From an uncultured Lachnospiraceae bacterium (GTDB lineage: Bacteria > Bacillota > Clostridia > Lachnospirales > Lachnospiraceae): 15,389 bases of DNA. Below the pieces are notes generated by a model. The model was not told where the DNA came from. It saw nothing but the letters and a program-made list of their open reading frames with translations, and made no database searches. Position 1 is the first letter of the stretch, and every line of letters begins with the position of its first letter. Positions 1 through 15,266 of this stretch are shown here, piece by piece. The stretch spans positions 1 to 15,389 of the forward strand of contig CADCQU010000329.1 of assembly GCA_902803635.1 (NCBI GenBank). The letters are read 5' to 3'. Position numbers and translations under genes: made by a program.

Positions 1-1430
1 GCATCGGCCACTTGCCCATCCCCGGAAAGGCCATGGAGTCTCTCATACTCCCTGGCGGCGGACGTCTCGGAGCCGCCCTTGCCGACGGTGTAGATGCGGA
101 TCATCGTGCGGAGGAAATAGAGGGCGTTAAGAACCGAGCTAAGCGCGAGGGCCAGCATGGTCAGGATAATCTTGACAAAGCTCTCGGCGCTCACCGCCGC
201 GAGCGCGAAGAGGAGCTTCGACGAGAAGCCCGCGAAAATCGGGATGCCGACCATCGAGAACGAGCCGACGAGGAAGAATAACCCCGCCGTACGGGCACGG
301 TGCGCACTCCCCTGCAGGTCACGGAACCGAAGGCTCCCGCCCGAGACCTCCGCAAGGTAGGGCGTCGTCAGGAAGAGCAGGGCCTTTGTCACGCAGTGCG
401 TCAGGATGTGGAAAATGGCCGCCGTGTAGCCGGCCAGCCCGCCGATCCCGATGCCCATGAAAATGTAGCCGATCTGCGCGGCCGAGGAGAAAGCCACCAT
501 GTGGTTCACATTTTTCGCCCGGAGGGCCGAGACCGAGCCGAAGACCATCCCCAGAATGCCGAGAACGAAAAGGATCCGGCTGATCTGCATTTTCGCAAGC
601 ACCTCGGTACCGATGACGCGGAGGTAGATTTTAATAAGAAGAATCAGGTACCCCTTCGACACAAGGCCCGCCAGGAGCGCAGCCGAGGTGGGCGTCGCCC
701 AGCCGTAGGTGTCCGGCATCCAGAAATGGAAGGGGAAAAGCCCGATCTTGATGCAAAGTCCGATGGTCAGAATCCCCGTCGAGAGGGCCAGCGTCATCAG
801 CTCGTTGGGATTTGACGAGAGCTCCACAATCACCTCGTGCATCGGCACCATCAGCAAATGCCCCGTGATCGCGTAGAGAAGCACGAGGCCTAAGAGAAAG
901 AGACCCGAGCCGAGGAGGTTTAAGACCATGTAGCGGACCGCCGCCAGCGTCGTGCGTCCGATCTGGCGGATAATGAGAATGCCGCAGGAAGTCAGAGTCG
1001 ATATCTCAAGAAATACGTATCCCGTGAAAATGTCATTTGTGAAGACCAGCGCAAGGAGCGCGGCCCGAAGAAGATGGACGAGGGCATTGTACAAATGCAG
1101 CTTGCTCTCATCGACGTCGATTTTCAGGAATTTCCCACCCATCTGCACTGCGCAAAATTCGACGGTGAGGAAGGTGAGCACGAGGATGGCCTCCAAAATG
1201 CCCGCGCGGAGCTCGTTCCCCCAGGGCGCGGGAAATTCGCCGAGGACGAAGGTGAACGCCTTGCCGCTGCGGATGCAGAAGACAAGCAGGATCGCCGCCA
1301 GGGCGATGGCGACCAGCTCCAGCACCACCAGATAAATTTTCGCTGCCCTCCGCCCCAAAGCAAGGCTAAGAGCCCCCGAAAAGAGGCTCATGAGGATAAG
1401 TAGGAGGGGTATGTTCCGCGCTAATTCCAA
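1..1430 (-). CDS. mrpD: Mrp-type Na+/H+ antiporter subunit D (MrpD/MnhD/MbhH family), 3' end cut by the window
   Basis: Proton-translocating membrane subunit homologous to NuoM/NuoN of complex I. About 476 residues are visible; the family is usually close to 490-500, so only a short C-terminal piece is missing. The protein is a run of hydrophobic helices. Recognisable family residues are E142 (FLEIS), K228 in the IKIGLFPFHFWMPD stretch, K259 (LVSKGY), the HMVAFSSAAQIGY segment and the HILTHCVTKALLF segment. Together these form the charged channel chain of this family. I chose the TTG at 1430 because AAAGGAA lies 10 nt upstream (1441-1447) and it gives the usual short hydrophobic N-terminus; the next in-frame ATG (1391) has no Shine-Dalgarno. 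It is the last visible gene of the Mrp operon, 94 bp after mrpC, and that gap holds a palindromic repeat. Coupled ion (Na+ or K+) is not readable from sequence. Confidence 0.93.
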   Translation of the reverse strand, partial: MELARNIPLLLILMSLFSGALSLALGRRAAKIYLVVLELVAIALAAILLVFCIRSGKAFTFVLGEFPAPWGNELRAGILEAILVLTFLTVEFCAVQMGGKFLKIDVDESKLHLYNALVHLLRAALLALVFTNDIFTGYVFLEISTLTSCGILIIRQIGRTTLAAVRYMVLNLLGSGLFLLGLVLLYAITGHLLMVPMHEVIVELSSNPNELMTLALSTGILTIGLCIKIGLFPFHFWMPDTYGWATPTSAALLAGLVSKGYLILLIKIYLRVIGTEVLAKMQISRILFVLGILGMVFGSVSALRAKNVNHMVAFSSAAQIGYIFMGIGIGGLAGYTAAIFHILTHCVTKALLFLTTPYLAEVSGGSLRFRDLQGSAHRARTAGLFFLVGSFSMVGIPIFAGFSSKLLFALAAVSAESFVKIILTMLALALSSVLNALYFLRTMIRIYTVGKGGSETSAAREYERLHGLSGDGQVAD

Positions 1431-1440
1431 GGTGGTTGGT

Positions 1441-1447
1441 TTCCTTT
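1441..1447 (-). promoter_or_regulatory. Ribosome binding site deciding the TTG start of mrpD
   Basis: The minus strand reads AAAGGAA, 10 nt before TTG at 1430. The downstream in-frame ATG at 1391 is preceded by pyrimidine-rich sequence with no purine-rich site, so translation most likely starts at TTG. Confidence 0.6.
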
Positions 1448-1483
1448 CCGATAAATTTGTCAGCTTCCATAAGGAAAGCTCCT

Positions 1484-1508
1484 GTCATCCTGAGCGAAGC
1501 GAAGGATC
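1484..1508. repeat. Short palindromic intergenic repeat, copy 1 (core GAGCGAAGCGA)
   Basis: The plus strand reads GTCATCCT, then GAGCGAAGCGA, then AGGATC. The arms ATCCT and AGGAT are perfect inverted repeats around the core. A second copy lies at 15344-15374 with arms ATTCT/AGAAT, so the arm changes are compensatory. This copy sits in the 94-bp gap between mrpC and mrpD, inside the Mrp operon, where other operon gaps are mostly 13-35 bp or overlaps. It resembles short hairpin repeats (GTCATYCTGAGCGAAGCGAAGRATC type) scattered through many bacterial genomes. Confidence 0.7.
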
Positions 1509-1524
1509 TTTTCTGGCGATTCCT

Positions 1525-1915: not shown

Positions 1916-2863
1916 CTACGCATTACCGCCAATTCTTCCCCGCCGAAACAGGCTGAAGAAGCCGAACATCGTGAAGGCGACCACGAGCCCGACGGCGATA
2001 TCGAGCGGAAGGATCAGCCCGCCCGAGAGAATCGCGCCCGGCGTTCCCTTGGGAATGCCGTTTTCGATGCCGTTTCCGCCGGTAAAGAAGACGTAGCCCT
2101 TCGCGAAGCTGTAAAAACCGAGCGCGGCCACGCTCCCAAAAAGGAAAAGCTTCCTTGTAAAGAAGCGGTCCACATGGTCAAAGCCGAAGGCCGCCGTGAA
2201 AATCACCATCCCCGCGCCGAGGACCGCCCCGCCGGAAAAACCGCCGCCGGGACCGTTCTGCCCATTGAGGAGAATGTAAAAGCCGAAGAGGAAAATGCAG
2301 GGCACGAGGAAAAGCCCGATTCCCCGCAAAATGACGTCCTTCGAGGTGTCAAAATAGCTGTCCTTCGAGATGCGGTAATAGTCCTCCAGCCCCTTGCGCG
2401 TATTTTTCTTGTCAAGGCTAAGGAGAATCATCACGACCACCAGGGCCGTGAACAGCACGTGCGACTCCCCGAGCGTGTCAAAGGCACGGTAGTCGAGAAT
2501 CATCCCGGCGACCACGTTGATTGCGCCGGTCTCCTCAACGCCTTCTGCCACATAGCGGTCCGAAACCACCGAGGCGCGGGCATTTTCCTCGCCGTAAAGT
2601 GGCAAATGCGCGACCAGAAAGAGGAGGACGCCGATAATGAGGATGCACGAGGCGACCGCGACCACGCGGTAGAAAATCTGGAACGTTTTCCGCTCAAGGG
2701 CGACGGCCGTGGTCGTGCCGGGACTTTGGTCGATCAAAGCCCGCGTCCGCTTCTCCCGCGCCTTTATCTCCTCGCGGGAGGCATCATACGCCTCCACCGC
2801 AAGGTCCGCATTTTCCAGTGGGTCCGTCTCCCCCGCCAGCCATTTTCGAAATTTTTCCTTCAT
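1916..2863 (-). CDS. MbhE-MrpB fusion, membrane subunit of an MBH-type Mrp complex
   Basis: 315 residues in three parts. Residues 1-60 are a charged cytoplasmic segment. Residues about 62-150 carry two helices and the TGAINVVAGMILDYRAFDTLGE region typical of MbhE, the C-terminal piece of classical MrpA. From about residue 175 to the end is an MrpB/MnhB domain, with the NGQNGPGGGFSGG signature after its first helix and three more helices. Fusion of these two subunits is known in clostridial operons annotated as membrane-bound-hydrogenase subunit E. The ATG overlaps the stop of the upstream gene as ATGA (2860-2863), indicating coupled translation. The TAG stop is followed after 13 bp by mrpC. 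Confidence 0.87.
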   Translation of the reverse strand: MKEKFRKWLAGETDPLENADLAVEAYDASREEIKAREKRTRALIDQSPGTTTAVALERKTFQIFYRVVAVASCILIIGVLLFLVAHLPLYGEENARASVVSDRYVAEGVEETGAINVVAGMILDYRAFDTLGESHVLFTALVVVMILLSLDKKNTRKGLEDYYRISKDSYFDTSKDVILRGIGLFLVPCIFLFGFYILLNGQNGPGGGFSGGAVLGAGMVIFTAAFGFDHVDRFFTRKLFLFGSVAALGFYSFAKGYVFFTGGNGIENGIPKGTPGAILSGGLILPLDIAVGLVVAFTMFGFFSLFRRGRIGGNA

Positions 2864-3147
2864 GGCGACTCCTCCTCTTCCTCCTCCTCCCCAATAAGCC
2901 CCTCGTCCACCTTCCGGAGCTTCCGGAGCGTCAGGAGAAAGAGGATCGTCGAGAGGCCCGCGCCGACCGCCGCCTCCGTGATGGCAAGGTCCGGCGATTC
3001 CATCAGCATCCAGACAAGGCTCATCACCGAGCTGTAGGCCATGAAAATGACCACCGACTGCAGAAGGCCGCGCGTGACATTGACGGCAATCGCGCAGACG
3101 ATGAGGGCCACCAGCAAAATCACTTTAAAAATCTCCGTCATTTGCAT
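2860..3147 (-). CDS. MbhD-like DUF4040 membrane protein (C-terminal MrpA module as a separate gene)
   Basis: 95 residues, three predicted helices, ending in a run of glutamates (residues about 87-93). The segment LLQSVVIFMAYSSVMSLVWML followed by SPDLAITEAAVGAGLST is the DUF4040 signature found near the C-terminus of MrpA and in MbhD of membrane-bound hydrogenase. Here it stands alone, as in MBH/MBX/MBS operons. The start is ATG at 3147 with GGCGGTGAG upstream, 4 bp after the MrpG stop; its own stop overlaps the next start. No NuoL-like N-terminal MrpA domain is fused to it, and none is encoded upstream in this window. Confidence 0.88.
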   Translation of the reverse strand: MQMTEIFKVILLVALIVCAIAVNVTRGLLQSVVIFMAYSSVMSLVWMLMESPDLAITEAAVGAGLSTILFLLTLRKLRKVDEGLIGEEEEEEESP

Positions 3148-3151
3148 CTTC

Positions 3152-3616
3152 TCACCGCCTTTTGCCCTTCTTCCTCGCTTGTTTCCCCTTGCCGGAATGA
3201 TTTTTCGGCAAATGTCCCGTACCCGTTTCCTTTGCGTTTTCTTTCTTTACGTCGTCTCCATCCTTCGTCTCAGCCGGGAGCTCTGTACTCTTTTCACCAC
3301 AAATCCTACGTATATGTTTCAGATATTCCGTGTCGCCCTCCATCTCGATCCTCGCCAGAAAATGCGAGTTCACCGGGGACGTGCACCAGAGGAAGACGAT
3401 GAGGGCTGCGAGCTTGAGCAAATCCATCCCACCACTTACGCTGATCATTAAGCTCAAAATGACCAGAAGCATGCCCAGGGAATCCCCGATTCCGGCCGCG
3501 TGCATCCGGTTCAGCACGTAGCCGAAGCGATAGTTGCCCAGCATGGCCGCGGCAAAGGCAAGAATTCCGCCCAAAAGCAGCACGGCGGTCAGGCCAAAGC
3601 GAATCCACGCAATCAT
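3152..3616 (-). CDS. mrpG: Mrp antiporter subunit G (MrpG/MnhG) with a lysine-rich tail
   Basis: 154 residues from the ATG at 3616, which has GGGAGGGAG a few bases upstream; the longer reading from 3646 lacks such a site. Three predicted helices occupy roughly residues 3-90, with the family segment YRFGYVLNRMHAAGIGDSLG between helices 1 and 2 and the TSPVNSHFLAR motif after helix 3. Residues about 110-154 form a highly charged tail, rich in lysine (GKGKQARKKGKRR at the very end), absent from short family members of about 110-120 residues. The tail is probably cytoplasmic and disordered. MrpG is one of the small subunits needed for Mrp complex assembly. Confidence 0.9.
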   Translation of the reverse strand: MIAWIRFGLTAVLLLGGILAFAAAMLGNYRFGYVLNRMHAAGIGDSLGMLLVILSLMISVSGGMDLLKLAALIVFLWCTSPVNSHFLARIEMEGDTEYLKHIRRICGEKSTELPAETKDGDDVKKENAKETGTGHLPKNHSGKGKQARKKGKRR

Positions 3617-3682
3617 CTGCACTCCCTCCCAATCGTTGCAGAACAAACAAATTCTCCAAAAGGCGAAGTCCTTCCCTTTCGC

Positions 3683-3973
3683 TCAATCATCCTTCCGCCC
3701 CTTCCTCTTCCGAAGGTAAACGCTCGAAAGCACCAGCACCGTAACGAAGCTAATCATCGTGTAAATAAGCGCGACGTCCAGAAGGTAGCTCTCCCGAAGC
3801 ATCTGGGAGAGGATCGCGATCATCGCGATCACAAGGCTCCCCAGCATGTTCACGCCGAGGATGCGGTCCGTGACCCGCGGCCCAATAATCGTCCGCACGA
3901 GGGCCAGTGCCAGCAGACATCCCATGAAAACAAGGGCTATCGAATATAATGTATGGTAGGCCTCTGAAAGCAT
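3683..3973 (-). CDS. mrpF: Mrp antiporter subunit F (MrpF/MnhF)
   Basis: 96 residues, three predicted helices. The central RTIIGPRVTDRILGVNMLG segment is the conserved loop of MrpF (usually GPt..DRilA.n), and the end LRESYLLDVALIYTMISFVTVLV is the conserved third helix. The ATG at 3973 is preceded by AGGAGGG with a 4-nt spacer, 12 bp after the MrpE stop. It closes with a basic tail (RKRKGRKDD). A small structural subunit of the antiporter, expected in the membrane next to MrpG. Confidence 0.93.
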   Translation of the reverse strand: MLSEAYHTLYSIALVFMGCLLALALVRTIIGPRVTDRILGVNMLGSLVIAMIAILSQMLRESYLLDVALIYTMISFVTVLVLSSVYLRKRKGRKDD

Positions 3974-3985
3974 AGTTCCCTCCTG

Positions 3986-4477
3986 TCATTCCCACCGCAG
4001 CTTCTCTAAAATCTGCACAAAGCGACTTTCCGCGATTCCCTCTCCGTACTCCGGCCGCAGGCAGTGCACCACGAAATGCCCCGCCTCCATGGAAACCGTA
4101 ATCGTCCCCGGTGTCAAGGTGATGGCATTTGCCAGAAGAACGTTCTGAACGCTGCTTTTTAGCGTCGAGTCAAATTCCACCAGCACCGGGTCGGGCCGGC
4201 GTTTCGGCGAGATGGCGAGCCCCGCCACCGCCAGCGCGGCCTTGACAATCTCCCAGATAAGGCAAATGACGTAGGACAGGAACACCGGGACGTTCTGCCA
4301 AATGCACCTCTCGCGCCGGATCGTCCAGCCAAAGGTCCACCTTACAAACAAAAAAAGGAGCGCGGAAAGAAGGCAGCCGAAAAGAAGGATTTCGGCTGTC
4401 ACGCGCCCGTTAAAAATCACCCACAAAACGAAAAACAGGATAATCATCGCCATCTCCGTCCCATGCTTTTTCTGCAT
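3986..4477 (-). CDS. mrpE: Mrp antiporter subunit E (MrpE/MnhE)
   Basis: 163 residues. Two to three helices lie in the first 85 residues, followed by a soluble domain with the family signature SSVQNVLLANAITLTPGT and a VHCLRPEY segment; the length matches MrpE (about 160). The ATG at 4477 has AAGGAAGGG about 9 nt upstream. An internal ATG at residue 9 is possible, but the purine run before it is too close to act as a ribosome binding site. It is the first recognisable Mrp subunit in the operon, 78 bp after the small membrane protein gene at 4556-4780. Confidence 0.92.
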   Translation of the reverse strand: MQKKHGTEMAMIILFFVLWVIFNGRVTAEILLFGCLLSALLFLFVRWTFGWTIRRERCIWQNVPVFLSYVICLIWEIVKAALAVAGLAISPKRRPDPVLVEFDSTLKSSVQNVLLANAITLTPGTITVSMEAGHFVVHCLRPEYGEGIAESRFVQILEKLRWE

Positions 4478-4555
4478 TCCGGCAGCCCTTCCTTTTACAG
4501 GTGCCGGGCAATAAAATCGGCCTTGGGAGCTGTTTTAGACCTCTCACCGGTTTCC

Positions 4556-4780
4556 TTACACAGCCCCGTTAATCTGCGGCGCGAGTATAAGAAGTATGGT
4601 CGTTGCAACCATCGCGATGAACAGCCCGCCGAGGACCACGAAACTGCCGGTCCGCGTCCGCCCCCGGTCCGTGTCCTTCCGCCGGATCATCGTGACCAGG
4701 ATCATGGCCATGCCAATCACCACGGCAATCACGCCTGCCGCCAGAAGCCCGATCATAATGTTGTATACCATCTGAATCAT
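4556..4780 (-). CDS. Small two-helix membrane protein of unknown function at the head of the Mrp operon
   Basis: 74 residues with two hydrophobic helices at about 5-31 and 47-66, joined by a basic loop (RRKDTDRGRTRTG, positions 33-45), which by the positive-inside rule should be cytoplasmic. The ATG at 4780 has AAAGGGGAG upstream with good spacing. I do not recognise a family. Being first in the operon, co-directional and only 78 bp before mrpE, it is probably co-expressed with the antiporter and may be an accessory or assembly subunit. That is inference from position only. Confidence 0.75.
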   Translation of the reverse strand: MIQMVYNIMIGLLAAGVIAVVIGMAMILVTMIRRKDTDRGRTRTGSFVVLGGLFIAMVATTILLILAPQINGAV

Positions 4781-4800
4781 AATGCGTCTCCCCTTTAGAA

Positions 4801-4866
4801 AAGCATTTTCTGCGTCAGTGCTATCAATTTATATTCTATCTTCGTAACTATATATATATTTCAAAT
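4801..4866 (-). promoter_or_regulatory. AT-rich intergenic region, probable promoter region of the Mrp operon
   Basis: The 86-bp gap between the ATP-grasp stop and the small membrane protein gene is strikingly AT-rich around 4826-4866, with a (TA)n run at 4850-4859, in an otherwise GC-rich setting. A TTGAAA box (4859-4864) and TAGAAT box (4833-4838) are present, but their 20-bp spacing is too long for a confident sigma-70 call. No terminator hairpin is visible after the ATP-grasp gene. Confidence 0.3.
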
Positions 4867-6054
4867 TTACGCCTGCGAAATTTTTGCGCAATCCATGGCT
4901 TCCGCAAATATCCCCCGAAACTCCTCCGCGTCCGCGCAGGGCGCGATGACCTGCCCGATGCGGTCGGTCCCATCGTGCATCGCTGGAAGAGCATCCCCGG
5001 GGACATAGTCAAAGGAAACTTGAATACCTCTTTTTGCAAGTTCCTTTATTCTCTCTTCACGAATTGCCAGAAGCCGTCCTGGTTTTTCCAGATAGAGGAG
5101 GCTTGCCCGGCAGGGAGAGCTCCCTTGCAGCGTAAAATCCGCCGCCTCCCCCACCGATACGCGGAGCATTTGCCCGTAATAATCGATGCCGCCGTAGAGC
5201 GAGATGAGCTCCGGGATGCAGGTAGCCCCGCAGCGCCCGCCGGCCTCGATGACGTAAATCTCCTCGCCCACGATGAAGGCATCCATGTTCATCGCGCAGT
5301 TGTCCATGCCCGTCGCCTGCACGATCCGCCGCACCTGCTCAGCAAGGTCCCGCGTAAGGGCTTCCGTCATCGGACAGGGGAAAATATGCCCCACCGGCAT
5401 AGACGTCGCGCCGGCTCTATATACAAGCTTGTCATGCGGCAGGAGCAACACGATCTCCCCGTTCCGGATGAAGGCATCGACGCCGATCTCATGGCCCTCG
5501 ATGAACTTTTCCAAAACAAGGTAGGGCTTCGCGGTGACTGTTTTTGCCTTGGCAAATGCCTCCGCCACCTCTTCTTCGGTGTCCACGCGGATGATCCCCC
5601 GGCTCCCGGATTTGTCGGTCGCCTTCACGATGCAGGGTGCGCCAAATGTGGTAAAGGCTTCCAGTGCCTCGGCAAGGCTTGTCACCCTCCGAAAATCCGC
5701 CGTCCGGACATTTGCCGCAGCAAATGCCTCCTTCATGAGGGCCTTGTCCGTCAGGATTTCGGCCGCCCTCCCGGAAATGCCCGCAAGGCCGAGCTGATCG
5801 TTCACAAACCCGATTGAGCGCACCGCGACATCCGTCCCCGTCGTGCAAATGCCGGCAATCCCGTGTGCACGGGCGGCGGCGAGGATTCCCTCCGCGTCCG
5901 TGGTGTCGAGGTAGAGCACCTCGTCCGCCAGCGCAAAGCCCGGGTAATGCCCCTGGTAGCTTACGACAATCGTGTAAAAACCAAGCTCGCGGGCCTTTTG
6001 GATGAGCGGAACCTGGTAGATTCCCGCCCCTAAAATCATTATTTTTTGTTGCAT
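4867..6054 (-). CDS. ATP-grasp ligase (ATP-grasp_4, carbamoyl-phosphate-synthetase/L-amino-acid-ligase-like)
   Basis: 395 residues from ATG at 6054, with GGAGA 5 nt upstream and MQQKIMILGAG as a typical first beta strand; the reading from 6159 would run into the upstream gene. Residues 1-100 form the pre-ATP-grasp Rossmann-like domain. ATP-binding features follow: a glycine-rich loop in the KATDKSGSRGI segment, the EKFIEGHEIGVDAFI segment and, at E270-R274, EAGGR, where many ATP-grasp enzymes have ExNxR. An E-x-x-x-R form without the asparagine is seen in L-amino-acid ligases, and the following CGATCIPELI matches that group. Such enzymes join a carboxylate to an amine through an acyl phosphate; the substrate is unknown. 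It is the third gene of a tight operon after the PLP enzyme and glycosyltransferase, and starts 13 bp after the latter. Confidence 0.88.
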   Translation of the reverse strand: MQQKIMILGAGIYQVPLIQKARELGFYTIVVSYQGHYPGFALADEVLYLDTTDAEGILAAARAHGIAGICTTGTDVAVRSIGFVNDQLGLAGISGRAAEILTDKALMKEAFAAANVRTADFRRVTSLAEALEAFTTFGAPCIVKATDKSGSRGIIRVDTEEEVAEAFAKAKTVTAKPYLVLEKFIEGHEIGVDAFIRNGEIVLLLPHDKLVYRAGATSMPVGHIFPCPMTEALTRDLAEQVRRIVQATGMDNCAMNMDAFIVGEEIYVIEAGGRCGATCIPELISLYGGIDYYGQMLRVSVGEAADFTLQGSSPCRASLLYLEKPGRLLAIREERIKELAKRGIQVSFDYVPGDALPAMHDGTDRIGQVIAPCADAEEFRGIFAEAMDCAKISQA

Positions 6055-6067
6055 AGGAATCTCCAGA

Positions 6068-7093: not shown

Positions 7094-8065
7094 CTAGATT
7101 CCTCCATTTGCCAGAAAATCATAAAACAGCGGCGTGCCCCCGGTATGCAGGAAAAGTATATTTTTTCCCTCGATTCCGTGTTCTTCAATATACGCACGCA
7201 TCCCCGCAAACGCCTTCCCGGTGTACGTGGGGTCGAGCGGAATGCCTTCCATGAGGAATGCCTCCCGGATGGTTTGGCAAATGCCCGCATCATACTGTCC
7301 GTAGCCACCGGCAAGATAGGCATCCTCCAGGCAGATTTCTCTCTCAAATCCCTCCGGAAGCGGCAAATGCGCATCCTGAAACCATGCCCGTACGCCGTCG
7401 GCAAGGATCCGGCTTCCCCTCTCCTTATCGCGGGAGACCGAGATGCCCACAATCTTCCGACCGTCGCCCGCCCGCAAATGCCCGGCGACAAGCCCGCTCT
7501 GGGTCGCGCCGGTGCCGGAGGCGTGGAAAATGTAGTCGAAAAAGACGCCCAGCTCCTCCTCCTGCCGGCAAATCTCGCTATACGCCTGTGCGTAGGCGCG
7601 GGCTGCGACGCCCTCGTTCCCCTCGCCGAGCCGGTTGCCGTAGATATAGTAGGGAACCAGCCCGCGGGACCTCGCCCGATGAAAAGCCTCGTCCACCGCC
7701 GGGGCAATCGCATTTTTCGCGCAATAGATAATCTCCGTGCCAAAAAGCCCCACGAGCCGGCTATTTGCCGTCTCCGCGTGCGTCCCGTCCGGGTCGTCCG
7801 AACAGACCATCATCGTCGGAACCCCCTCCCGGTAGCAGGCATTTGCCAGCACACGGCAAAGGTTCGAGCGGCTGTTGCCGTACATAATGAGGCAATTTGC
7901 CCCCTTCGCATTCATATCCGCAAGGAAGGCCGCCGCGATCCTCACCTTGTTCCCGCCCAGGGAAAACGGCAGAAGATCGTCCCGCTTCATATAATATTGA
8001 TTTCCCAGCAAATGCAGCGGCACGATGGGTGTCTTTGCAAATGCCCATTCCATAGCCTTGGCCAT
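7094..8065 (-). CDS. PLP-dependent enzyme of the D-cysteine desulfhydrase / ACC deaminase family
   Basis: 323 residues from ATG at 8065. Fold-type II PLP enzyme: the Schiff-base lysine is K40 in SLGGNKVR, preceded by KRDDLLPF; the GNSRSN motif follows; the phosphate-binding loop is ASGTGATQSGL; and the C-terminal HTGGTPLF is characteristic of the D-cysteine desulfhydrase/1-aminocyclopropane-1-carboxylate deaminase family. Members release ammonia or sulfide from small amino acids, but specificity varies, and operon context here (glycosyltransferase, ATP-grasp) argues against simple D-cysteine detoxification. The start is fixed by GGGAG six nt before ATG; that site lies within a terminator-like hairpin. 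A longer frame from a TTG at 8152 would run through the leader structure and is not supported. Confidence 0.88.
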   Translation of the reverse strand: MAKAMEWAFAKTPIVPLHLLGNQYYMKRDDLLPFSLGGNKVRIAAAFLADMNAKGANCLIMYGNSRSNLCRVLANACYREGVPTMMVCSDDPDGTHAETANSRLVGLFGTEIIYCAKNAIAPAVDEAFHRARSRGLVPYYIYGNRLGEGNEGVAARAYAQAYSEICRQEEELGVFFDYIFHASGTGATQSGLVAGHLRAGDGRKIVGISVSRDKERGSRILADGVRAWFQDAHLPLPEGFEREICLEDAYLAGGYGQYDAGICQTIREAFLMEGIPLDPTYTGKAFAGMRAYIEEHGIEGKNILFLHTGGTPLFYDFLANGGI

Positions 8066-8234: not shown

Positions 8235-11200
8235 TTAGAAAATCTGATTCATCCCATGGGACTGTTCATAGGCCTGGATCATGTCCACGTTCGCCTTTGC
8301 GGTGGGCGAGAGCATGCTGTCGTCAAATTGCCCCGCCGGCACCGTGGGATGGTACCACGAGAACTGCGAGAAGTACTGGACATACTCCGGCTTGCTGAAC
8401 GTGTAACCCGCCCTCGCGTAGATTTCATTTGCAATCAGACGAATCTCCTGTGCGGACCGACCATCCAGTTCCGAAGGACTCATGAGGCGCGTGCTGCTAT
8501 CCGCAACCAGCTCGCCGCCATTTGCCTTCGCCTTGACGGCAACCTCGTTGATGGCCGCCTGCTTTTTGGCGGCTTCGGCCTCTGCGGCAGCCTTCCGGGC
8601 GGCTTCCTCCGCCGCTTTCCGGGCAGCCTCCTCCTCGGCGGCCTTCCGGGCGGCTTCCTCCGCCGCCTGACGAGCAGCTTCCTCCTCAGCGGCCTTCCGG
8701 GCGGCCTCCTCCTCGGCGGCTTTCCGAGCGGCTTCCTCCGCCGCCTGCCGAGCAGCTTCCTCCTCAGCGGCCTTCCGGGCAGCTTCCTCCTCGGCAGCCT
8801 TCCGGGCAGCTTCCTCCTCGGCGGCCTTCCGCGCAGCTTCCTCTTCCGCAGCCTTTCGGGCGGCCTCCTCCTCGGCGGCCTTCCGCGCAGCTTCCTCCTC
8901 CGGGGTCAGCGTGCTTCCAGCTGTACCCGTAGACGTATCCCCACTCGTTGTCTGTGAGACCGTGCTTTCATCACTTCCCGTGGACGTGCTCGTAGTAGTG
9001 CTCTCCGTCCCGGAAACCATGCTCGTATCACTGCTCGTCGTCCCAGAGGCCGTGCTTGTGTCAGTGCTTGTCGTCCCAGAGGCCGTACTTGTATCGGCGC
9101 TTGTCGTCCCCGAAACCGCGCTCGTATCGGTGCTTGTCGTCCCCGAAACCGCACTCGTATCGGTGTTGGAGGCCTCCGAAATCGACCGATCTATTTCCGA
9201 CGGTGTCGGTGTCAGGATGACATCCGACGAGACGGTGCTCTGCCCGCCGGAAAAGAGCTTTGTGAGCTGCCAGTTCCCGGCTGCGGGTGAGAGGAAGAAA
9301 GCCAGTGCACCGACCAAAACGCCTCCCACGATGCAGGGTGCCAGCCATTTGCGTTTCTTCTTCCCTTCCTCCTGCGGCGGTTCATCCTCGAAGAAACCCC
9401 GCATATCCTTATCCTTGTAATACGCCTCGTCCGAGTCCACGAGCCGGCCGCTCCCGTCCTCCGCAAAGTAACGGTAGCCGTCGTTCGGGGCCTTGGGCTC
9501 GTCCGTATCGGCCTCAGTAGCCTCAACCTCGGCCTGTGCCGCATCGGCCTCGAAAACTCCCGCTTCGGAAGTTCCTTCCTCAGAACCGTTTGCTTCGAGG
9601 GTTCGCTCTTCGGGTATCCCCTCTTCAGAGCTACCCGCTTCGTTCGTTCCTGCTTCGAAAGCTCCTTCTTCAAAGCTACCGGCTTCGTTCATTCCTGCTT
9701 CGGTAGTTCCTTCTTCAAAGCTACCGGCTTCGTTCGTTCCTGCTTCGGCAGCCCCTTCTTCAAAGCTACCAGCTTCGTTCGTTCCTGCTTCGGGAGTTCC
9801 TTCTTCAAAGCTACCGGCTTCGTTCGTTCCTGCTTCGGGAGTTCCTTCTTCGGTAGTTCCTTCTTCAAAGCTACCGGCTTCGTTCGTTCCTGCTTCGGAA
9901 GCTCCTTCTTCAAAGCTACCAGCTTCGTTCGTTCCTGCTTCTGGAGTTCCTTCTTCAGAGCTACCCGTTTCATTCGTTCCTGCTTCGGAAGCTCCTTCTT
10001 CAAAGCTACCGACTTCGTTCGTTCCTGCTTCGGGAGTTCCTGCTTCAAAAGCTCCGGCTTCGTAGGTTCCTTCTCCGTATGCTCCGGTTCCGGAGGTTCC
10101 TTCTCCCAAATCTTTCGCTTCGGAGGTTCCATCCTCGAAATTTCCCGCTTTGGACACTTCCGCTTCAGAAGCTCCTGCTTCATAAGTCTCTGTTTCGGTG
10201 GTTCCTGCTTCGGATGCTCCTGTCTCTAAAATCCCATCATCAGAAACTCCCGTCTCAAAAGCCCCCGCATCGGACGTTCCCGCATTGAAAGCACCTGTGT
10301 CAAAGGCCCCCGCTTCGGAAGCTGTATCCGCTGCCACCTTCGTTCCGGCCTGTGATGCAGCGAAGGCCTCGACCAACACGGCGCCTGCAGCAGCTCCTAA
10401 AATCCCCTTTTGTTCATTATCTGTATCTTTTATCTCTTCTGTATTATCTGGAGATACACTTCCGTCCGGCACATCCGCAGCCACGGCATCCGTCTGATCC
10501 GATAATCCACCCTCAGCAAGGCCTGCTCCACCGGCTGCGTCCACAATACCTTCAAGTGGCGGATTTGAACCATCCCCTGCCACCGAACCTGTTTCACCGG
10601 CTTCCTTCACGGCATTTCCATACACCGCCTCCGCATAAACGTTCTCGGCAAAGACTGCCCTACCGGCTTCATCCACAGAACCTTCAAATGGCGGATTCGA
10701 GGGATAGCCTTCCTCAGAACCCGTCTCGTCGTGCATATCTTCCGTTTTGATTCCTTCCGGCTTCGTGTAAGCAGTCTCGGCAGCATTTGCCCCGTCGGCT
10801 TCCTGCGCGGCACTCTCCGGCGTCGATTCCGCAGAATCACCTACACCAAAATCCGCCCCGACGGACACATTTGCCGTATCCGCCGCAGCGGCATTTGCCA
10901 GCAAACCGCCTCCGACAATCCCCGCCGAAATGGTGCCCGCCAGAAGCCCGCTTTGGACAATTCCTTCCTCCCCGGGTGCATCGACGATGGCTGCAATCTC
11001 CTCAGGCGAAAGACGGCCGTCAGAAGCCCCGGCAGGCGAAGCCGCATTTGCCGTCTCCTCATCCTCATAAAGCCCGCTCACGGAGTTCGTCCCACAGATT
11101 GAGCAGACAATCTCCCCTTCCGCCAGCTCACTCCCGCAAAAGACGCAGTATCTTTTATTCGGATCCTGCCGGAATGAACTTTTGTTCAACGCGCCGCAGT

Positions 11201-11270
11201 ACACGCAAAATTTCAGGTCCTCATCGATGAGGCGCCCGCAGCTCTTGCATTTCACACGCTTTCCGCTCAT
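8235..11270 (-). CDS. Large repeat-rich membrane protein: two N-terminal zinc ribbons, one membrane helix, C-terminal YARHG domain
   Basis: 1011 residues. Zinc ribbons: C8/C11/C22/C25 and C42/C45/C56/C59. Then an Ala/Gly/Glu-rich low-complexity stretch, with a partial internal duplication around residues 193 and 237 (SNPPFEG / SNPPLEG). Residues about 319-573 are acidic pentads of form xGxxE, including nine 15-residue copies at 414-553. A basic KKKRKW stretch precedes the single helix at about 643-662. After it come Thr/Ser-rich 11-residue repeats (703-757), twelve [13 protein letters not shown] repeats (791-895) and a YARHG domain (about 929-1011) containing [11 protein letters not shown] and a WYHP motif. 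The eponymous histidine is alanine here. Expected topology: ribbons and acidic repeats cytoplasmic, YARHG outside. Function unknown; zinc-ribbon/YARHG proteins are common in clostridia. ATG with AAAGGGGAA upstream, own promoter. Confidence 0.88.
8586..8900 (-). repeat. 24-27-bp tandem repeats encoding [13 protein letters not shown] units (12 copies)
   Basis: Twelve units of 8-9 residues ([26 protein letters not shown]) in a row. The pattern predicts a long charged, alanine-rich helix that would extend the YARHG domain away from the membrane. Unit length is always a multiple of 3 bp, so gain or loss of copies keeps the reading frame. Confidence 0.9.
9000..9164 (-). repeat. 33-bp tandem repeats encoding [15 protein letters not shown] units (5 copies)
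   Basis: Five 11-residue Ser/Thr-rich units (residues 703-757), continuing into degenerate copies down to about 8910. They lie just outside the membrane helix, and the composition resembles an extended cell-wall-spanning linker. Confidence 0.85.
9612..10031 (-). repeat. 45-bp tandem repeats encoding [19 protein letters not shown] units (9 copies), within a longer 15-bp periodicity
   Basis: Nine copies of a 15-residue unit (residues 414-553), interrupted by one extra pentad (EEGTP, 474-478). The unit is itself three pentads of form ExGxx, and degenerate pentads continue on both sides (about residues 319-573, DNA 9552-10316). Several copies are identical or nearly so at DNA level, which points to recent expansion by slippage or unequal recombination. 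Confidence 0.92.
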
Positions 11271-11377
11271 TCAAATTCCCCTTTTCTTTCCAAAACTCCC
11301 ACAATGCATAAACACACGGCTTGCCCTATCGTGCAAAAGTCGCTCCCCAGCTATTTGCAAATGGCAATACCTGTTCT

Positions 11378-11426: not shown

Positions 11427-12347
11427 TTATCCTCTCGGTTCAAGAAACTTATCCCCATCCAAATGAATCATATGGTCCGGTGCCTCGGCAATCCAAACCT
11501 CAGTTTCCCACGCCAGAGATTCTGAAAATTTCTTGTATGTTCCAAAATCCGGGAATGCCGTCACAAAGATTTTTCCGGCCGTAACATTCTCTGTCATCTC
11601 CTTGATTTCAAGGAGTCGCTTCGGGTTCATTGGACCAACAGACGTAACGGCCTCAACGAAGTAAAGCCAGTTTTTGTCCACATTATAAAGAACAACATCC
11701 GGCATTTTATCGTGGAGCGTAATCGCAAAACCGATGGACTTCAACTTTTCAGCATTCTTCACCAGGTCCTTCTCAACCGTATCTCCCACATACAGGCACT
11801 CTGCATTTGGCGCAAACCGAGGAGCAAATTCCTCAAGAATAGCCTTTTGTAATTCGTTATGTTTTCCTGGCGAAAAAGCAAAATCCTGTTCATTAATCCG
11901 AACGGGCATCTTTGTCATGCGTTTTTTTGACGCATACATATCAATCAAACGGTCATGGTAGGCCAAAAAGCGTTGGAACATCGTATTTTGGTTCGTTTCG
12001 CCAACACTGCGTATAATTTCAAGCGTTTCCGCAGTCAACCTATATCGATAGTTCGGACTATTTGTCGCCTTCCCATTATCCTCGATCAAAGCCGCAGTTC
12101 GAAAAGGATGCATTGCCTGTTTGCGGAAGGTCTCGCGGCTATTTTCTGCATACGTCGTTCCATAATTTTCATTTACAAATGCAATAATATCATGAATTCG
12201 TATCCACGCATTTGTAGCATCCTGCCAAGACGTCTTCTCCGCAAGCCCTGCCATTGCCAGCAAAGACAAACAACATATATCTGCCAGCTGAGCCTTCGGC
12301 ATTCCAAGTTCCTGCAAAAGTGCCCGGACTTCCTCTACCTTACCCAT
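11427..12347 (-). CDS. Type II restriction endonuclease, BsuBI/PstI family
   Basis: 306 residues, close to BsuBI (316) and PstI (326). The N-terminal half (about 1-150) matches the helical, HTH-like domain of the family. The C-terminal catalytic half has YVGDTVEK, then MPDVVLYN with D217, KNWLYFVEAVTS with E232, TAFPDFGTY, and WETEVWIAEAPDHMIH, all close to the family consensus; D217 and E232 are the probable PD-(D/E)XK-type metal ligands. The family cuts CTGCAG; I infer that target by homology. The ATG lies inside the methyltransferase gene's last codons (8-bp overlap, ATGGGTAA), with GGAGGT 5 nt upstream, so translation is coupled. The region is AT-richer than its neighbours and carries few GCAAATG words, suggesting acquisition by transfer. 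Confidence 0.93.
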   Translation of the reverse strand: MGKVEEVRALLQELGMPKAQLADICCLSLLAMAGLAEKTSWQDATNAWIRIHDIIAFVNENYGTTYAENSRETFRKQAMHPFRTAALIEDNGKATNSPNYRYRLTAETLEIIRSVGETNQNTMFQRFLAYHDRLIDMYASKKRMTKMPVRINEQDFAFSPGKHNELQKAILEEFAPRFAPNAECLYVGDTVEKDLVKNAEKLKSIGFAITLHDKMPDVVLYNVDKNWLYFVEAVTSVGPMNPKRLLEIKEMTENVTAGKIFVTAFPDFGTYKKFSESLAWETEVWIAEAPDHMIHLDGDKFLEPRG

Positions 12348-13848
12348 AAGCTACCTCCATCACGATTTGATCGCAAGCAGGCGTAGTCAAATCTCCCGAA
12401 GCGAGCACCCGTTCGCCTATTTGTCGTATCTTTGCAAATGGCGGGACGGGAATGCTGTTAATTTCCGTGCTGTTAACCTGTGTACTTCCATTGAGAACAC
12501 GATAATACTGATCAAAAAGAGTGGAATTTAGAAGTGCATAGACCCCATATGCCGTCTGCGCGTCCATATACGAGCCATCCAAAAGATCAACATAGTTTAT
12601 CTTGTTCTGCGTTCCTATGGATGCATATTCAGGATAATCTTCTGACAAATATACCCCGCACTGGAGGCGGCGTCGCTCTTCCTTTGCTGTAAACCTCTTG
12701 CAGAAAACATAGTTTTTATTCTTCTGGATAAGTCCGGGCTTCGCATCAACAATCCAATCATATTCCTTCCCGGAAGAATGGTGATGCACCCGGCCATCCC
12801 GAATATGCTGACTGTAAAACAGAGGAACAATATGCTCCCCCGGCTCTTTACGAAGCTCATCCCACTGGCGGAAATCCACGACAATCCCAGTACGCATCCG
12901 TAAGCCCTCCTCTGGAAGGGTATGCGTATATCGATGTATTTTATGGATAACGTCCATCTCTTCCAGGCTTGTTGGCAGGAACACATATAAATCTTTTCCA
13001 GCCACAACAGACGAATAAGGGACGCAAAAGGACGTGGTCTCCTTGAAATCGTTGCTGCTTTGGCTGGAAGTCAGGTTGACAAATTCCGGCTCCTTCACCG
13101 TTTTCTTTACCTTTATAATCATGGTTTCCTGGAGTACTTCTTCTTCCTTAAAAACCTTATCCCTGCTAACGAACAAATGAATCTGCACAAGTTTTCCATT
13201 TGTCAGCAAATATTTGCGAAAATGGTGAAAATACAAACCGGAAGTCCAACTTCTCGGAATAATATACACCATTTCTGCATTATTTTTCAAATTGAACAGC
13301 GACATTGCGGCAAACAAAAAATACATGTTCGGAGCTCCATGCACGACCTCCGGCATCGCCGCAGCAGCGGCATCATTTCGCATAACACGTAAATATGGAG
13401 GATTCGCAATTATCAAATCATATTTCTTTTGCTTCTCCACCGCCAAAAAATCTTCCTTAAAATCATGCTGCTGCGAAAGAATATAATTCTCCTCCAATAG
13501 CTCATATTCCAAAGGGATTGTGGACATCTCCTGTATCCGCGCAAGGTTCTCCTGCAGAAGTGGCCGTATTTCCGTATCAATCTCATAACACGTCAAATGA
13601 ATCCGCTGAACGGAAGCCTCCAGGTTTAGCCGTTCAACCAGTGCCGCCGAAAGAATACCGCTGCCCGTCCCAGGATCCAGTATGTTGATTTCCTCCGGCA
13701 AGGAAGACAGATCAAACATTCCAGCCATGTATCGGGCTGTCTCCATAGAAGTGAAAAACTGGCCCTTTTTCTTTCGTATTGCCTTTGGCATTTCCTTCAG
13801 AAAATCTTTCGTACTCTCTATGATCCTGCAAAGAATCTCTCCAGCCAT
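12340..13848 (-). CDS. N6-adenine DNA methyltransferase of the BsuBI/PstI-type system
   Basis: 502 residues, matching M.BsuBI/M.PstI in size (about 500). Gamma-class order of motifs: motif X KKGQFFTS (about 27-34), motif I DPGTGSG (58-64) for S-adenosylmethionine binding, acidic YEID (88-91), and catalytic motif IV NPPY (149-152). The C-terminal half is the target-recognition region, with a PRSWTSG segment and a late PVPP motif. It would protect the host by methylating adenine in CTGCAG (by homology). The ATG at 13848 has AAGGAAGGG 4 nt upstream. It is the first gene of the restriction-modification pair and therefore expressed before the nuclease. No controller protein gene is visible. Confidence 0.93.
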   Translation of the reverse strand: MAGEILCRIIESTKDFLKEMPKAIRKKKGQFFTSMETARYMAGMFDLSSLPEEINILDPGTGSGILSAALVERLNLEASVQRIHLTCYEIDTEIRPLLQENLARIQEMSTIPLEYELLEENYILSQQHDFKEDFLAVEKQKKYDLIIANPPYLRVMRNDAAAAAMPEVVHGAPNMYFLFAAMSLFNLKNNAEMVYIIPRSWTSGLYFHHFRKYLLTNGKLVQIHLFVSRDKVFKEEEVLQETMIIKVKKTVKEPEFVNLTSSQSSNDFKETTSFCVPYSSVVAGKDLYVFLPTSLEEMDVIHKIHRYTHTLPEEGLRMRTGIVVDFRQWDELRKEPGEHIVPLFYSQHIRDGRVHHHSSGKEYDWIVDAKPGLIQKNKNYVFCKRFTAKEERRRLQCGVYLSEDYPEYASIGTQNKINYVDLLDGSYMDAQTAYGVYALLNSTLFDQYYRVLNGSTQVNSTEINSIPVPPFAKIRQIGERVLASGDLTTPACDQIVMEVAYG

Positions 13849-13954: not shown

Positions 13955-14028
13955 CAGAAATTCCTCTATAATTTATCGGATTCAGGTGAAGCATCCCACG
14001 TTTTCCGCCGAAAATCAAGCATCAGAAC

Positions 14029-14052
14029 ACATTTTTTCGTTGGAAAAAATGT
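14029..14052. promoter_or_regulatory. Perfect 10-bp inverted repeat upstream of the restriction-modification genes
   Basis: ACATTTTTTC and GAAAAAATGT pair perfectly around the 4-nt loop GTTG. It lies in the 248-bp gap between the CobD-like gene and the methyltransferase, 1 bp from a second palindrome (14054-14068). It could be a bidirectional terminator or an operator; the A/T-rich stem with T runs on both strands fits either. Confidence 0.45.
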
Positions 14053-14053
14053 A

Positions 14054-14068
14054 AACCTAAATTAGGTT
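14054..14068. promoter_or_regulatory. 7-bp inverted repeat AACCTAA-A-TTAGGTT, possible operator
   Basis: AACCTAA and TTAGGTT are perfect inverted repeats around one base. It is 206 bp upstream of the methyltransferase ATG and about 29 bp after the CobD-like stop. Partial echoes (TTAACCTA at 14082-14089) are nearby. No regulator gene is visible in the window to bind it. Confidence 0.35.
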
Positions 14069-14096
14069 GGTAAATCCCCATTTAACCTATCCCCAA

Positions 14097-15266
14097 TCAG
14101 GGGTAAATTTCTGCGAGAAGCCTCTCATTCTCCTCCCGCGTGCGAACCGCGGTGCGGTACCAGGTGGCATCGAGCCCCCGGAAGTTTGCGCAGCTCCGGA
14201 GGAGGATGCCTCGCTCCTGAAGACGAGGGCCAAGTTCTTCATCCGCCTGAAAAAGCAGGAAATTCGCCTCGCCGGGAAGCACGTGAAAGCCAAGGTTGGA
14301 GAGTCTGGCCCTGAGGAACTCCCGTTCCGTCCGTACGAGTTCCGCAAGCCTCTCCTCGTATCTTTCATCGTTAAGGGCGGCCACCCCCGCCGCCTCGGCG
14401 ACCGAGGAGACACCCCACGGCGGCCCCGCGTTTTGCATTCTCATTAGAAGCTTCTCGTCATTCGATACTGCATATCCCAGCCGCAGCCCGGCCATGCCGT
14501 AGAACTTCGTAAATGCCCGAAGAAGGATCAGTGAACCTCCCGAACCCTCCGCACATGCGATGGCCATTAGCAGGCTATCTTGCCGCTCTCTTGCAACAAA
14601 AGGCAGAAAGCATTCGTCCACTAAGAGCACGGCTCCGACTTCCCGGCACCTTGCCCAGACCTTCCCCAGCAAATCCCGCGGCCAGAGCATGCCGGTCGGA
14701 TTGTTCGGGTTGCAAATGAAGACCAGCCCGACCTCCTCCGTAATTTCTGAAAGAAATGCCTCCGAAGGCAAAAAGTTCTCCTTCGCGTCCAACAGAAAGT
14801 GCCGTATCTCCGCACAGCCAGCCGCCGCAAGTGCCCTTTCATATTCGGCAAATGTCGGCTCCGCAAGGACTGCGGCCTTCGGCTGCACGGCAAATGCGAG
14901 CCGATAAATGAGATCCGCCGCTCCGTTTCCGCAAAGTATCTGCGAGGGAGAAATTCTTTTTTTTACATGCTTCTTCCGTGCGCCAGCTTTTTCCGCATGC
15001 TTCTCCGAAAGCCCGGCTGCGTGACTGGGGGAGACCGAAAATGTTGCTTCTTCCGTGAGCTTCTCCGCAAGCACCGCCCGCAGACGTCGGCATTCCGGGT
15101 CTGGGTAGAGATGCGCATTTGCAAGAGCCTCCCGAGCGGCAGCCCTTGCGGCAGGCGACAGACCTAACGGGGAGACATTTGCCGAAAAATCAAGCGGGGC
15201 CTCTCCTCGTTCCAAGTATGGATATATGTTTCCCCCATGCGCATATATTTTATCTCCCTTCTGCAA
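14097..15266 (-). CDS. cobD: CobD-like threonine-phosphate decarboxylase (class I/II PLP aminotransferase fold) with an internal insertion
   Basis: 389 residues from a TTG at 15266. The N-terminus HGGNIYPYL...LDFSANVSPLGL is the CobD hallmark. PLP-site features: GNGAADLIY (113-121), NPNNPTG (186-192), D217 in LLVDECF, Schiff-base K254 in AFTKFYGMAGLRLGY, and R262 in the same stretch. CobD makes (R)-1-amino-2-propanol phosphate for the cobalamin nucleotide loop; the nearest alternative is histidinol-phosphate aminotransferase. Residues about 71-104 are an extra hydrophilic segment (several H, K and R, including KKHVKKR) between the small-domain helix and the GNG strand; most relatives are about 360 residues without it. 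No other cobalamin gene is in the window, so the pathway cannot be confirmed here. Confidence 0.75.
   Translation of the reverse strand: MQKGDKIYAHGGNIYPYLERGEAPLDFSANVSPLGLSPAARAAAREALANAHLYPDPECRRLRAVLAEKLTEEATFSVSPSHAAGLSEKHAEKAGARKKHVKKRISPSQILCGNGAADLIYRLAFAVQPKAAVLAEPTFAEYERALAAAGCAEIRHFLLDAKENFLPSEAFLSEITEEVGLVFICNPNNPTGMLWPRDLLGKVWARCREVGAVLLVDECFLPFVARERQDSLLMAIACAEGSGGSLILLRAFTKFYGMAGLRLGYAVSNDEKLLMRMQNAGPPWGVSSVAEAAGVAALNDERYEERLAELVRTEREFLRARLSNLGFHVLPGEANFLLFQADEELGPRLQERGILLRSCANFRGLDATWYRTAVRTREENERLLAEIYP

What the first reader, a model, noticed from the sequence alone, without database searches (positions are those of the whole stretch)
854..15182. GCAAATG is strongly over-represented, on both strands and in different frames: an uptake-signal-like or other iterated DNA word
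I count 32 copies of GCAAATG/CATTTGC in 15.4 kb (17 and 15 per orientation). With independent bases at about 56% GC, roughly 1.6 would be expected. All genes are on the minus strand, yet both orientations occur equally. In the PLP-enzyme gene alone the word is read as Ala-Asn (GCA AAT), Ala-Phe-Ala (GCA TTT GCA), His-Leu (CAT TTG) and Ile-Cys (ATT TGC), so it is not explained by one codon preference. One copy is in an untranslated leader. Extension to GGCAAATG in 19 copies suggests a longer consensus. This is how DNA uptake sequences or HIP1-like words behave. To my knowledge no such word is described for clostridial Firmicutes, so its function (uptake, recombination, nucleoid protein binding, methylation) is open.
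Basis: partly seen in the sequence, partly recalled or inferred. Interest (0 to 1): 0.74.

Follow-up and report, generated by a model that had tools for sequence, protein, structure and literature searches.

The report
Lineage-specific DNA word in Lachnospiraceae
A short DNA word is scattered about once every 750 bases through the genome of a bacterium of the family Lachnospiraceae, and related species carry different versions of the same core, which looks like a tag for recognising and taking up DNA of one's own kind, though that function is not shown.

Summary
GCAAATG occurs 32 times in the window (shuffles: mean 3.1, maximum 8) and 3156 times in the 2.42 Mb draft genome (1.3 per kb; reversed word 157). 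In 261 kb of sampled genes there are 393 copies against 57 after synonymous-codon shuffling, raised in all six frames; non-coding DNA is enriched too. Orientation is random. The consensus is Y-G-[G>A]-C-AAAT-G-C-C with a rigid AAAT and graded outer bases. New here: the genus has 'dialects'. Different species are enriched for GGCAAATG, GAAAATG or AAATGAA, all sharing AAATG, and the dialect follows a ComEC tree; 13 of 28 species show none by the rule used. Against a sister species (73% identical syntenic DNA) the words are mostly lineage-specific and arise by substitution. This parallels neisserial uptake-sequence dialects. The genome carries ComEA, ComEC and a type IV pilus. A DNA-uptake signal is most likely (about 0.5), but uptake is not shown, and type IV pilus genes do not track the word across the genus, so a HIP-like, methylation- or repair-linked word remains possible.

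The parts
854..860 (+). GCAAATG copy (AGCAAATG), antisense in gene 3-1430
2602..2608 (+). GGCAAATG copy; same 7-base word in sister G298
3139..3145 (-). GCAAATG copy overlapping the start of gene 2860-3147
3208..3214 (+). GGCAAATG copy
4126..4132 (-). GGCAAATG copy; one mismatch in sister G298
4262..4268 (+). GGCAAATG copy
5167..5173 (-). GGCAAATG copy; one mismatch in sister G298
5552..5558 (+). GGCAAATG copy
5709..5715 (-). GGCAAATG copy, inverted pair with 5720-5726
5720..5726 (+). GCAAATG copy; one mismatch in sister G298
5845..5851 (+). GCAAATG copy; one mismatch in sister G298
7105..7111 (-). GGCAAATG copy
7277..7283 (+). GGCAAATG copy
7363..7369 (+). GGCAAATG copy
7474..7480 (+). GCAAATG copy
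7840..7846 (-). GGCAAATG copy
8008..8014 (+). GCAAATG copy; same 7-base word in sister G298
8037..8043 (+). GCAAATG copy
8426..8432 (-). GCAAATG copy; one mismatch in sister G298
8519..8525 (-). GGCAAATG copy
9346..9352 (-). GCAAATG copy
10784..10790 (-). GGCAAATG copy
10868..10874 (-). GGCAAATG copy
10892..10898 (-). GGCAAATG copy
11045..11051 (-). GGCAAATG copy
11357..11363 (+). GCAAATG copy outside called genes, upstream of gene 8235-11270
12434..12440 (+). GCAAATG copy, the only one in the restriction-modification genes 11427-13848
14712..14718 (+). GCAAATG copy
14848..14854 (+). GGCAAATG copy
14890..14896 (+). GGCAAATG copy
15116..15122 (-). GCAAATG copy
15176..15182 (-). GGCAAATG copy

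Best explanation
The word is the genomic footprint of a DNA-uptake signal. A surface DNA receptor of this lineage prefers DNA carrying Y-G-[G/A]-C-AAAT-G. Fragments with the word are taken up and recombined more often, so point mutations that create the word spread through the chromosome, in any frame and on either strand, until it is present about once per 750 bases. In related species the receptor's preference has shifted while the AAATG core stayed, giving clade-specific dialects; other species have no detectable word. SHOWN: genome-wide, frame- and strand-independent enrichment, graded specificity around a rigid AAAT core, lineage-specific gain or loss by substitution, clade-structured dialects, presence of ComEA-, ComEC- and type IV pilus genes.
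For: Density 1.3 per kb, 3156 copies, 1543:1613 by strand, the highest of the 295 genomes of the order examined (my arithmetic on rounded sizes). 393 in genes against 57.3 by synonymous shuffling (maximum 70 of 30 shuffles), all six frames raised; 42 in 39.2 kb non-coding DNA against 7.0 expected. Random orientation: contig polarity chi-square 41.3 on 39 df, neighbour pairs 50/49/48/47. One-mismatch words: outer positions of GGCAAATG are raised 2.6- to 18.6-fold over nine relatives, core mismatches mostly are not. Dialects: GGCAAATG in G000, G298, G295; GAAAATG in G309; AAATGAA in G305, G326, G331, G311, G303, G328, G330, tested in genes for G305 and G311. The label needs 8 changes on the ComEC tree against 12.9 shuffled, 1 of 1000 as low. 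Words are not inserted repeats: sister DNA aligns through them. ComEC in 37 of 41 genus genomes; HHH_3 matches in 38 of 41, with a ComEA-type protein on the own genome's ComEC contig. Own genome has PilB, PilT, PilC, prepilin peptidase, PilM and a pilin in one cluster. Neisserial dialects likewise share an invariant core (CTG) with variable neighbours (PMC3630211, passages).
Against: Type IV pilus genes do not track the word: 4 of 7 PilB-bearing and 11 of 21 PilB-lacking genomes have a dialect (PilB status read by me). G309, G311, G305 and G326 have strong words and no PilB- or PilT-like match over the cut-off, so an uptake model needs another pilus there. The own contigs with the pilus cluster and with comEC are word-poor (0.79 and 0.73 per kb against 1.39 for that sample). 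No receptor was identified. The word is not specially retained against the sister genome (2 of 16 identical against 20% of control 7-mers). Some dialect labels are weak: in sampled genes G320 has GCAAATG 14 against 6.9 and G314 has GAAAATG 17 against 9.1, although their whole-genome counts are high. Depletion in mobile DNA could not be tested. One search for Lachnospiraceae, type IV pili and natural competence together listed 2 papers, neither on such a system by title.
Confidence: 0.5

Rival explanations
1. A HIP-like iterated word: enrichment is driven by a DNA methyltransferase or a repair/mutation process that favours the word, not by DNA uptake; dialects reflect exchange of the enzyme.
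For: HIP words are also highly iterated, are replaced by other words in some lineages, and their one-base deviations lie mostly at the ends (PMC4390886, abstract and passages). Lineage-specific appearance by substitution and lack of a link to PilB fit as well.
Against: HIPs are palindromic and generally accompanied by matching methyltransferases (which also shows exceptions); GGCAAATG is not a palindrome. Only a mild net deficit of core one-mismatch words (98 seen against about 140 scaled from relatives; my sum over), not the strong precursor depletion I would expect of directed repair. Methyltransferase specificity was not tested.
Confidence: 0.22
2. Binding site of a nucleoid, segregation or recombination protein (architectural role).
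For: Density and even spread over contigs (284 1-kb bins, mean 1.47, variance 1.62).
Against: Chi- or KOPS-like roles need strand polarity (recalled); none is found. Near-random spacing, little retention at aligned sites and several different words within one genus would be unusual for housekeeping sites.
Confidence: 0.13
3. By-product of codon usage, dipeptides, codon-pair or local mutational bias.
For: A weaker 2- to 3-fold excess of AAATG-containing words occurs in several genus members, with uneven frames.
Against: 6.9-fold (GCAAATG) and 11.5-fold (GGCAAATG) excess over synonymous shuffles with all six frames raised, and 6- and 13-fold in non-coding DNA; GGCAAATG 36-fold denser than in nine relatives.
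Confidence: 0.04
4. Dispersed mobile repeat (REP/MITE) carrying the word.
For: Other dispersed intergenic repeats exist in this genome group.
Against: Beyond about two bases on each side the 436 sites carry 0.07 bit or less per position; 31 of 32 window copies are inside genes, and sister DNA aligns without gaps through 16 of the 26 copies in the syntenic part.
Confidence: 0.01

Closest known systems
Neisserial DNA uptake sequence (DUS) and its dialects
   Same: Thousands of copies per genome, an invariant short core with variable neighbours, dialects consistent with phylogeny, some family members without an abundant word (PMC3630211, passages); about one copy per kb (PMC5397411, passage). Non-palindromic and inside genes on both strands (recalled).
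   Different: Different word (AAATG core, not CTG); a Lachnospiraceae lineage, not Neisseriaceae; uptake and receptor not shown; some species with a dialect lack PilB/PilT.
Pasteurellaceae uptake signal sequence (USS)
   Same: Genome-wide short word with related variants within a family (recalled; PMC1626085 seen only as a listing with the start of its abstract).
   Different: Different word; USS has flanking AT-rich segments (recalled), here almost no information beyond about 2 bases each side.
HIP1 and alternate HIPs of cyanobacteria
   Same: Highly iterated, lineage-variable, deviations mostly at the ends (PMC4390886, abstract and passages).
   Different: HIPs are palindromes generally with cognate methyltransferases; this word is not palindromic and no cognate enzyme was identified.

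Membership tests
DNA uptake sequence (as a kind) | Genome-wide over-representation near 1 per kb on both strands | tested here: met
   3156 copies in 2.416 Mb, 1543:1613, reversed word 157
DNA uptake sequence (as a kind) | Not explained by protein sequence or codon usage; present in all frames | tested here: met
   393 against 57.3, six frames raised
DNA uptake sequence (as a kind) | Rigid core with graded outer positions | tested here: met
   One-mismatch spectrum against 275 kb of nine relatives; 436-site profile
DNA uptake sequence (as a kind) | Dialects in related species sharing the core, following phylogeny | tested here: met
   and label test, 8 changes against 12.9; thresholds chosen by me, one label (G331) set by hand, labels of G314 and G320 weakly backed by sampled genes
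DNA uptake sequence (as a kind) | DNA-uptake machinery in the genome (ComEA, ComEC, pilus) | tested here: met
   presence of genes only
DNA uptake sequence (as a kind) | Word tracks the pilus that reads it (here tested for the type IV pilus only) | tested here: not met
   PilB presence and dialect unrelated: 4 of 7 against 11 of 21
DNA uptake sequence (as a kind) | Word-dependent DNA uptake and a specific receptor | not testable with these tools
   Needs a competent culture; the genus is known here only from genome records
DNA uptake sequence (as a kind) | Depleted in recently acquired mobile DNA | tested here: inconclusive
   One tyrosine recombinase and no relaxase matched in the draft; no trend with codon typicality
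Neisserial DUS | CTG core of the neisserial word | tested here: not met
   Consensus YG[G/A]CAAATGCC has no CTG core (core from PMC3630211)
HIP1-type words | Palindrome | tested here: not met
   GGCAAATG reads CATTTGCC on the other strand
HIP1-type words | Cognate methyltransferase | not tested
   Specificity of the genome's methyltransferases was not examined
Chi / KOPS | Strand polarity along the chromosome | tested here: not met
   Chi-square 41.3, 39 df, p 0.37 over 39 contigs
REP/MITE repeat | Conserved unit longer than the word | tested here: not met
   Flanks: 0.57 and 0.22 bit just before, 0.13 and 0.14 just after, 0.07 or less beyond

The most novel reading that the evidence does not exclude
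An independently evolved DNA-uptake-signal system in clostridial Firmicutes: a genus of Lachnospiraceae in which species mark their own DNA with dialects of an AAATG word, read by a surface receptor on a type IV or Tad-type pilus feeding ComEA/ComEC, so that gene exchange in a dense microbial community is channelled by sequence tags.
Probability: 0.45. Interest if true: 0.9.

Novelty: new variant of a known kind. Interest (0 to 1): 0.8.

Why it matters
One paper seen in passages calls transformation in Neisseria and the Pasteurellaceae unique in requiring short uptake sequences (PMC3630211), and a screen of two Veillonella parvula genomes found no repeated word of 10 bp or more that could serve as one (PMC5397411, passage). 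A genus-wide set of dialects in Lachnospiraceae would be a further, separate origin, would imply natural transformation in that family, and would give a handle for the genetics of its members (add the word to the DNA). If it is not uptake, a non-palindromic, HIP-like word is equally unexplained.

Tried and rejected
Codon usage, dipeptide and frame explanations: rejected for GCAAATG by synonymous shuffling and by non-coding DNA. Chi/KOPS-like polar word: rejected, no strand polarity. Longer mobile repeat: rejected by flanks and by sister alignment. Terminator or hairpin role: close inverted pairs exist, the window's pair at 5709-5726 lies inside a gene; not tested systematically. Foreign-gene depletion by codon typicality: no trend (Spearman -0.06, p 0.39); gene GC correlates weakly with density (Spearman 0.20, p 0.005). 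Mobile-element comparison: not possible. Type IV pilus as the determinant of the word across the genus: not supported. The first gene-calling script called almost no genes and was replaced; its numbers are not used. Five sampled pieces of the own genome proved to be all N and were dropped before the final counts; earlier calls (9 to 40) still held three or five of them, which adds bases but no words or genes. No positive control on a neisserial or Haemophilus genome was run.
Full report
OBSERVATION. GCAAATG/CATTTGC occurs 32 times in the window, 17 forward and 15 reverse; 200 dinucleotide-preserving shuffles give a mean of 3.08 and a maximum of 8. 19 copies are GGCAAATG. 31 copies are inside called genes, sense and antisense, in all codon offsets; one at 11357-11363 is outside called genes, upstream of the 8235-11270 gene.

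WHOLE GENOME. The window's draft genome (2,415,941 bases, 411 contigs, 88.65% complete) has 1543 + 1613 = 3156 copies, 1.31 per kb, against 157 of the word read backwards. GGCAAATG alone has 2177 copies against 49. Among the 295 genomes of the order examined (own included), the own genome is the densest; by my arithmetic on the printed table, whose sizes are rounded, the next is G057 with 800 in 1.6 Mb, 0.50 per kb. Of 36 other genomes of the genus, G295 follows with 2324 in 3.1 Mb, while G316 has 88 in 2.2 Mb. The reversed word is a rough control: it does not keep the dinucleotides.

NOT CODON USAGE. Five were entirely N and were dropped, leaving 39 pieces, 300,222 bases and 436 copies. Genes were called with my own script (recomputed). 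In 261 kb of genes there are 393 copies against a mean of 57.3 (maximum 70) in 30 synonymous-codon shuffles that keep each protein and its codon usage, but not codon-pair context. By frame, observed/expected: sense 163/16.7, 17/3.5, 48/9.8; antisense 30/2.2, 74/10.4, 61/14.6. GGCAAATG: 271 against 23.5. In 39.2 kb of non-coding DNA 42 copies against 7.0 expected from dinucleotides.

THE WORD. Around 436 sites the further preferences are G at -1 (68%), C or T at -2 (G avoided, 8%), C at +7 (47%) and C at +8 (47%); beyond that 0.07 bit or less per position. GACAAATG is a second form, 89 in genes against 8.6. Compared with 275 kb of nine genus relatives that I chose for lacking a strong GCAAATG-type word, GGCAAATG is 36 times denser. 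Its one-mismatch neighbours at the first, second and last positions are raised 2.6- to 18.6-fold; at the third position GGAAAATG is raised 2.5-fold; core (AAAT) mismatches are mostly at or below the relatives' level, 98 against about 140 in sum, with GGCACATG (10 against 3) and GGCGAATG (8 against 5) above it. There is no strand polarity over contigs (chi-square 41.3, 39 df, p 0.37); successive copies are ++ 50, +- 49, -+ 48, -- 47 (first 21 pieces). Counts per kb are near Poisson (284 bins, mean 1.47, variance 1.62).

HOW COPIES ARISE. Sister genome G298 has a syntenic contig (found, fetched). Over 10,077 aligned bases at 73% identity the own genome's region has 26 copies and that of G298 has 6. 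Of the 26, 16 fell in ungapped, well-aligned blocks (10 were left out): 2 are identical in G298, 5 differ by one base, 9 by two or more. Ordinary 7-mers in the same blocks are identical in 20% of cases (1464 of 7339), composition-matched ones in 35 of 297. The copies are therefore substitutions in homologous coding DNA, gained here or lost there, not insertions, and the existing ones are not specially retained.

DIALECTS. Word discovery by synonymous shuffling in stretches of 24 other genus genomes (stretches) put AAATG-containing words on top in several of them, but with different neighbours. By this test AAATG is the top 5-mer in G305, G309, G310, G311, G326 and L100 (which is G313), and second in G000. 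It is 0.85 in G322, 0.99 in G306 and 1.05 in G320, and lies between 0.78 and 1.73 in the named records outside the genus that were long enough to test. Frame-by-frame tests in genes: G309 GAAAATG 175 against 40.9; G305 AAATGAA 78 against 9.5; G311 AAATGAA 81 against 14.7; G295 GCAAATG 51 against 11.6; G310 GGAAATG 104 against 37.5; G320 GCAAATG only 14 against 6.9; none in G322 (GCAAATG 0 against 0.9, GAAAATG 7 against 6.1). Whole-genome counts over 41 genomes: GAAAATG, G309 3510 in 2.5 Mb and G314 3204 in 2.7 Mb, against G322 796 in 3.3 Mb (for G314 the 19-kb gene sample gives only 17 against 9.1). GGCAAATG: G000 2177, G295 871, G298 751, the other 38 at most 365. AAATGAA: G313 2703 (its reversed word is also high, 568), G305 2223, G331 1957, G321 1945, G311 1835, G326 1741, G330 1490, G328 1434, G303 1330, against G000 554 and G318 314. 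Some genomes are mixed (G311, G303 and G314 are raised for more than one word). On a ComEC tree of 30 genus genomes, 28 were labelled by a rule I chose (excess over the genus median of the word/reversed-word ratio; 2 had no GCAAATG count and were left out; G331 was set by hand for the same reason). The label changes 8 times against a mean of 12.9 in 1000 shuffles, 1 of which was as low (rule). 15 of 28 have a dialect and 13 none. Sister pairs G305/G326, G303/G311, G330/G328 and G320/G312 share their profile; G317/G315, near G295, fall under the threshold.

WHO IT IS. A scan of named genomes with the ComEC alignment returned 80 loci, the best of more. Matching contig lengths identify six genus members as Lachnospiraceae MAGs: RUG11216 (G306), RUG11217 (G301), UBA3689 (G307), RUI141 (G331), UBA1066 (G313) and RUG12917 (G332). 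That the RUG series comes from rumen is recalled. The own genome's name and habitat were not shown.

MACHINERY. ComEC matches in 37 of 41 genus genomes. The own one lies on C204, and the same contig encodes a SLBB plus helix-hairpin-helix protein of the ComEA type. HHH_3 matches occur in 38 of 41 genomes; the longer matching proteins of about 700 aa are probably Tex-like (recalled), the short ones ComEA-like. The own genome has a type IV pilus cluster on C50 (L187): PilB (T2SSE E 2e-129 with MshEN), a PilT-like ATPase, PilC (T2SSF), prepilin peptidase, PilM and a pilin with an N_methyl match. Four upstream open frames (2781-7675) have pilin-like N-terminal segments by my reading, but no pilin family match. 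Both contigs are word-poor (0.79 and 0.73 per kb). T2SSE matches over the cut-off occur in 38 of 41 genomes; many are 400-500 aa proteins that I read as Tad/CpaF type from the match range and, in G309, from neighbouring genes, not from a dedicated profile. PilB-bearing genomes are not enriched for a dialect: 4 of 7 against 11 of 21. This is the strongest result against a simple type IV pilus model. A review notes that DNA uptake in Micrococcus luteus is mediated by Tad-type (Tfpc) pili (PMC6916266, passages), so a Tad route is conceivable.

COMPARISON. In Neisseriaceae, DUS dialects share an invariant CTG core with variable neighbours, are consistent with the phylogeny, reach 3269 copies in Eikenella corrodens, and five genomes of the family have no abundant word (PMC3630211, passages). 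These traits are mirrored here with AAATG. HIP words of cyanobacteria are also iterated, also replaced in some lineages and also vary mostly at their ends, but they are palindromes generally tied to methyltransferases (PMC4390886, abstract and passages). A screen of two Veillonella parvula genomes found no sequence of 10 bp or more at 100 or more copies and left a shorter DUS open (PMC5397411, passage). Ten literature searches listed no title or abstract start reporting this word or an uptake word in Lachnospiraceae; some of the lists were capped, and subscription papers and preprints are not in the library.

VERDICT. An uptake signal is the best single explanation (0.5); a HIP-like or architectural word is not excluded.

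Noticed in passing
window 1475-1515 and 15343-15378: Two short intergenic sequences of the type GTCATYCTGAG...GAAGCGAAG-ATC have many near-identical hits elsewhere in genus genomes (dozens to about 1483-1512 in G295, several to 15343-15378 in G298). They look like dispersed intergenic repeats.
   Followed up: partly
window 11427-13848: A BsuBI/PstI-type restriction endonuclease next to an Eco57I-like N6 methylase. The endonuclease gene has GC 0.44 and no copy of the word; CTGCAG, the likely target (recalled), is under-represented in the sampled genome (99 against 152 expected).
   Followed up: partly
window 8235-11270: Large protein with N-terminal zinc ribbons, long [17 protein letters not shown] and EEAARKAAE repeats and a C-terminal YARHG domain.
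   Followed up: no
L187 5291-7675: About 795-residue protein with a pilin-like N-terminus (my reading) and a GLUG motif inside the type IV pilus cluster; possibly a giant tip pilin or adhesin.
   Followed up: no
L055, L075 (G307) and L068, L085 (G316): Other genus members have unrelated enriched words by synonymous shuffling, e.g. CAAAAG in G307 (53 against 12.1) and CTGTCA in G316 (50 against 17.9); possible further dialects without the AAATG core.
   Followed up: no
own genome G000: The draft has one tyrosine recombinase match and no relaxase match: few detectable mobile elements, or lost in assembly or binning.
   Followed up: no
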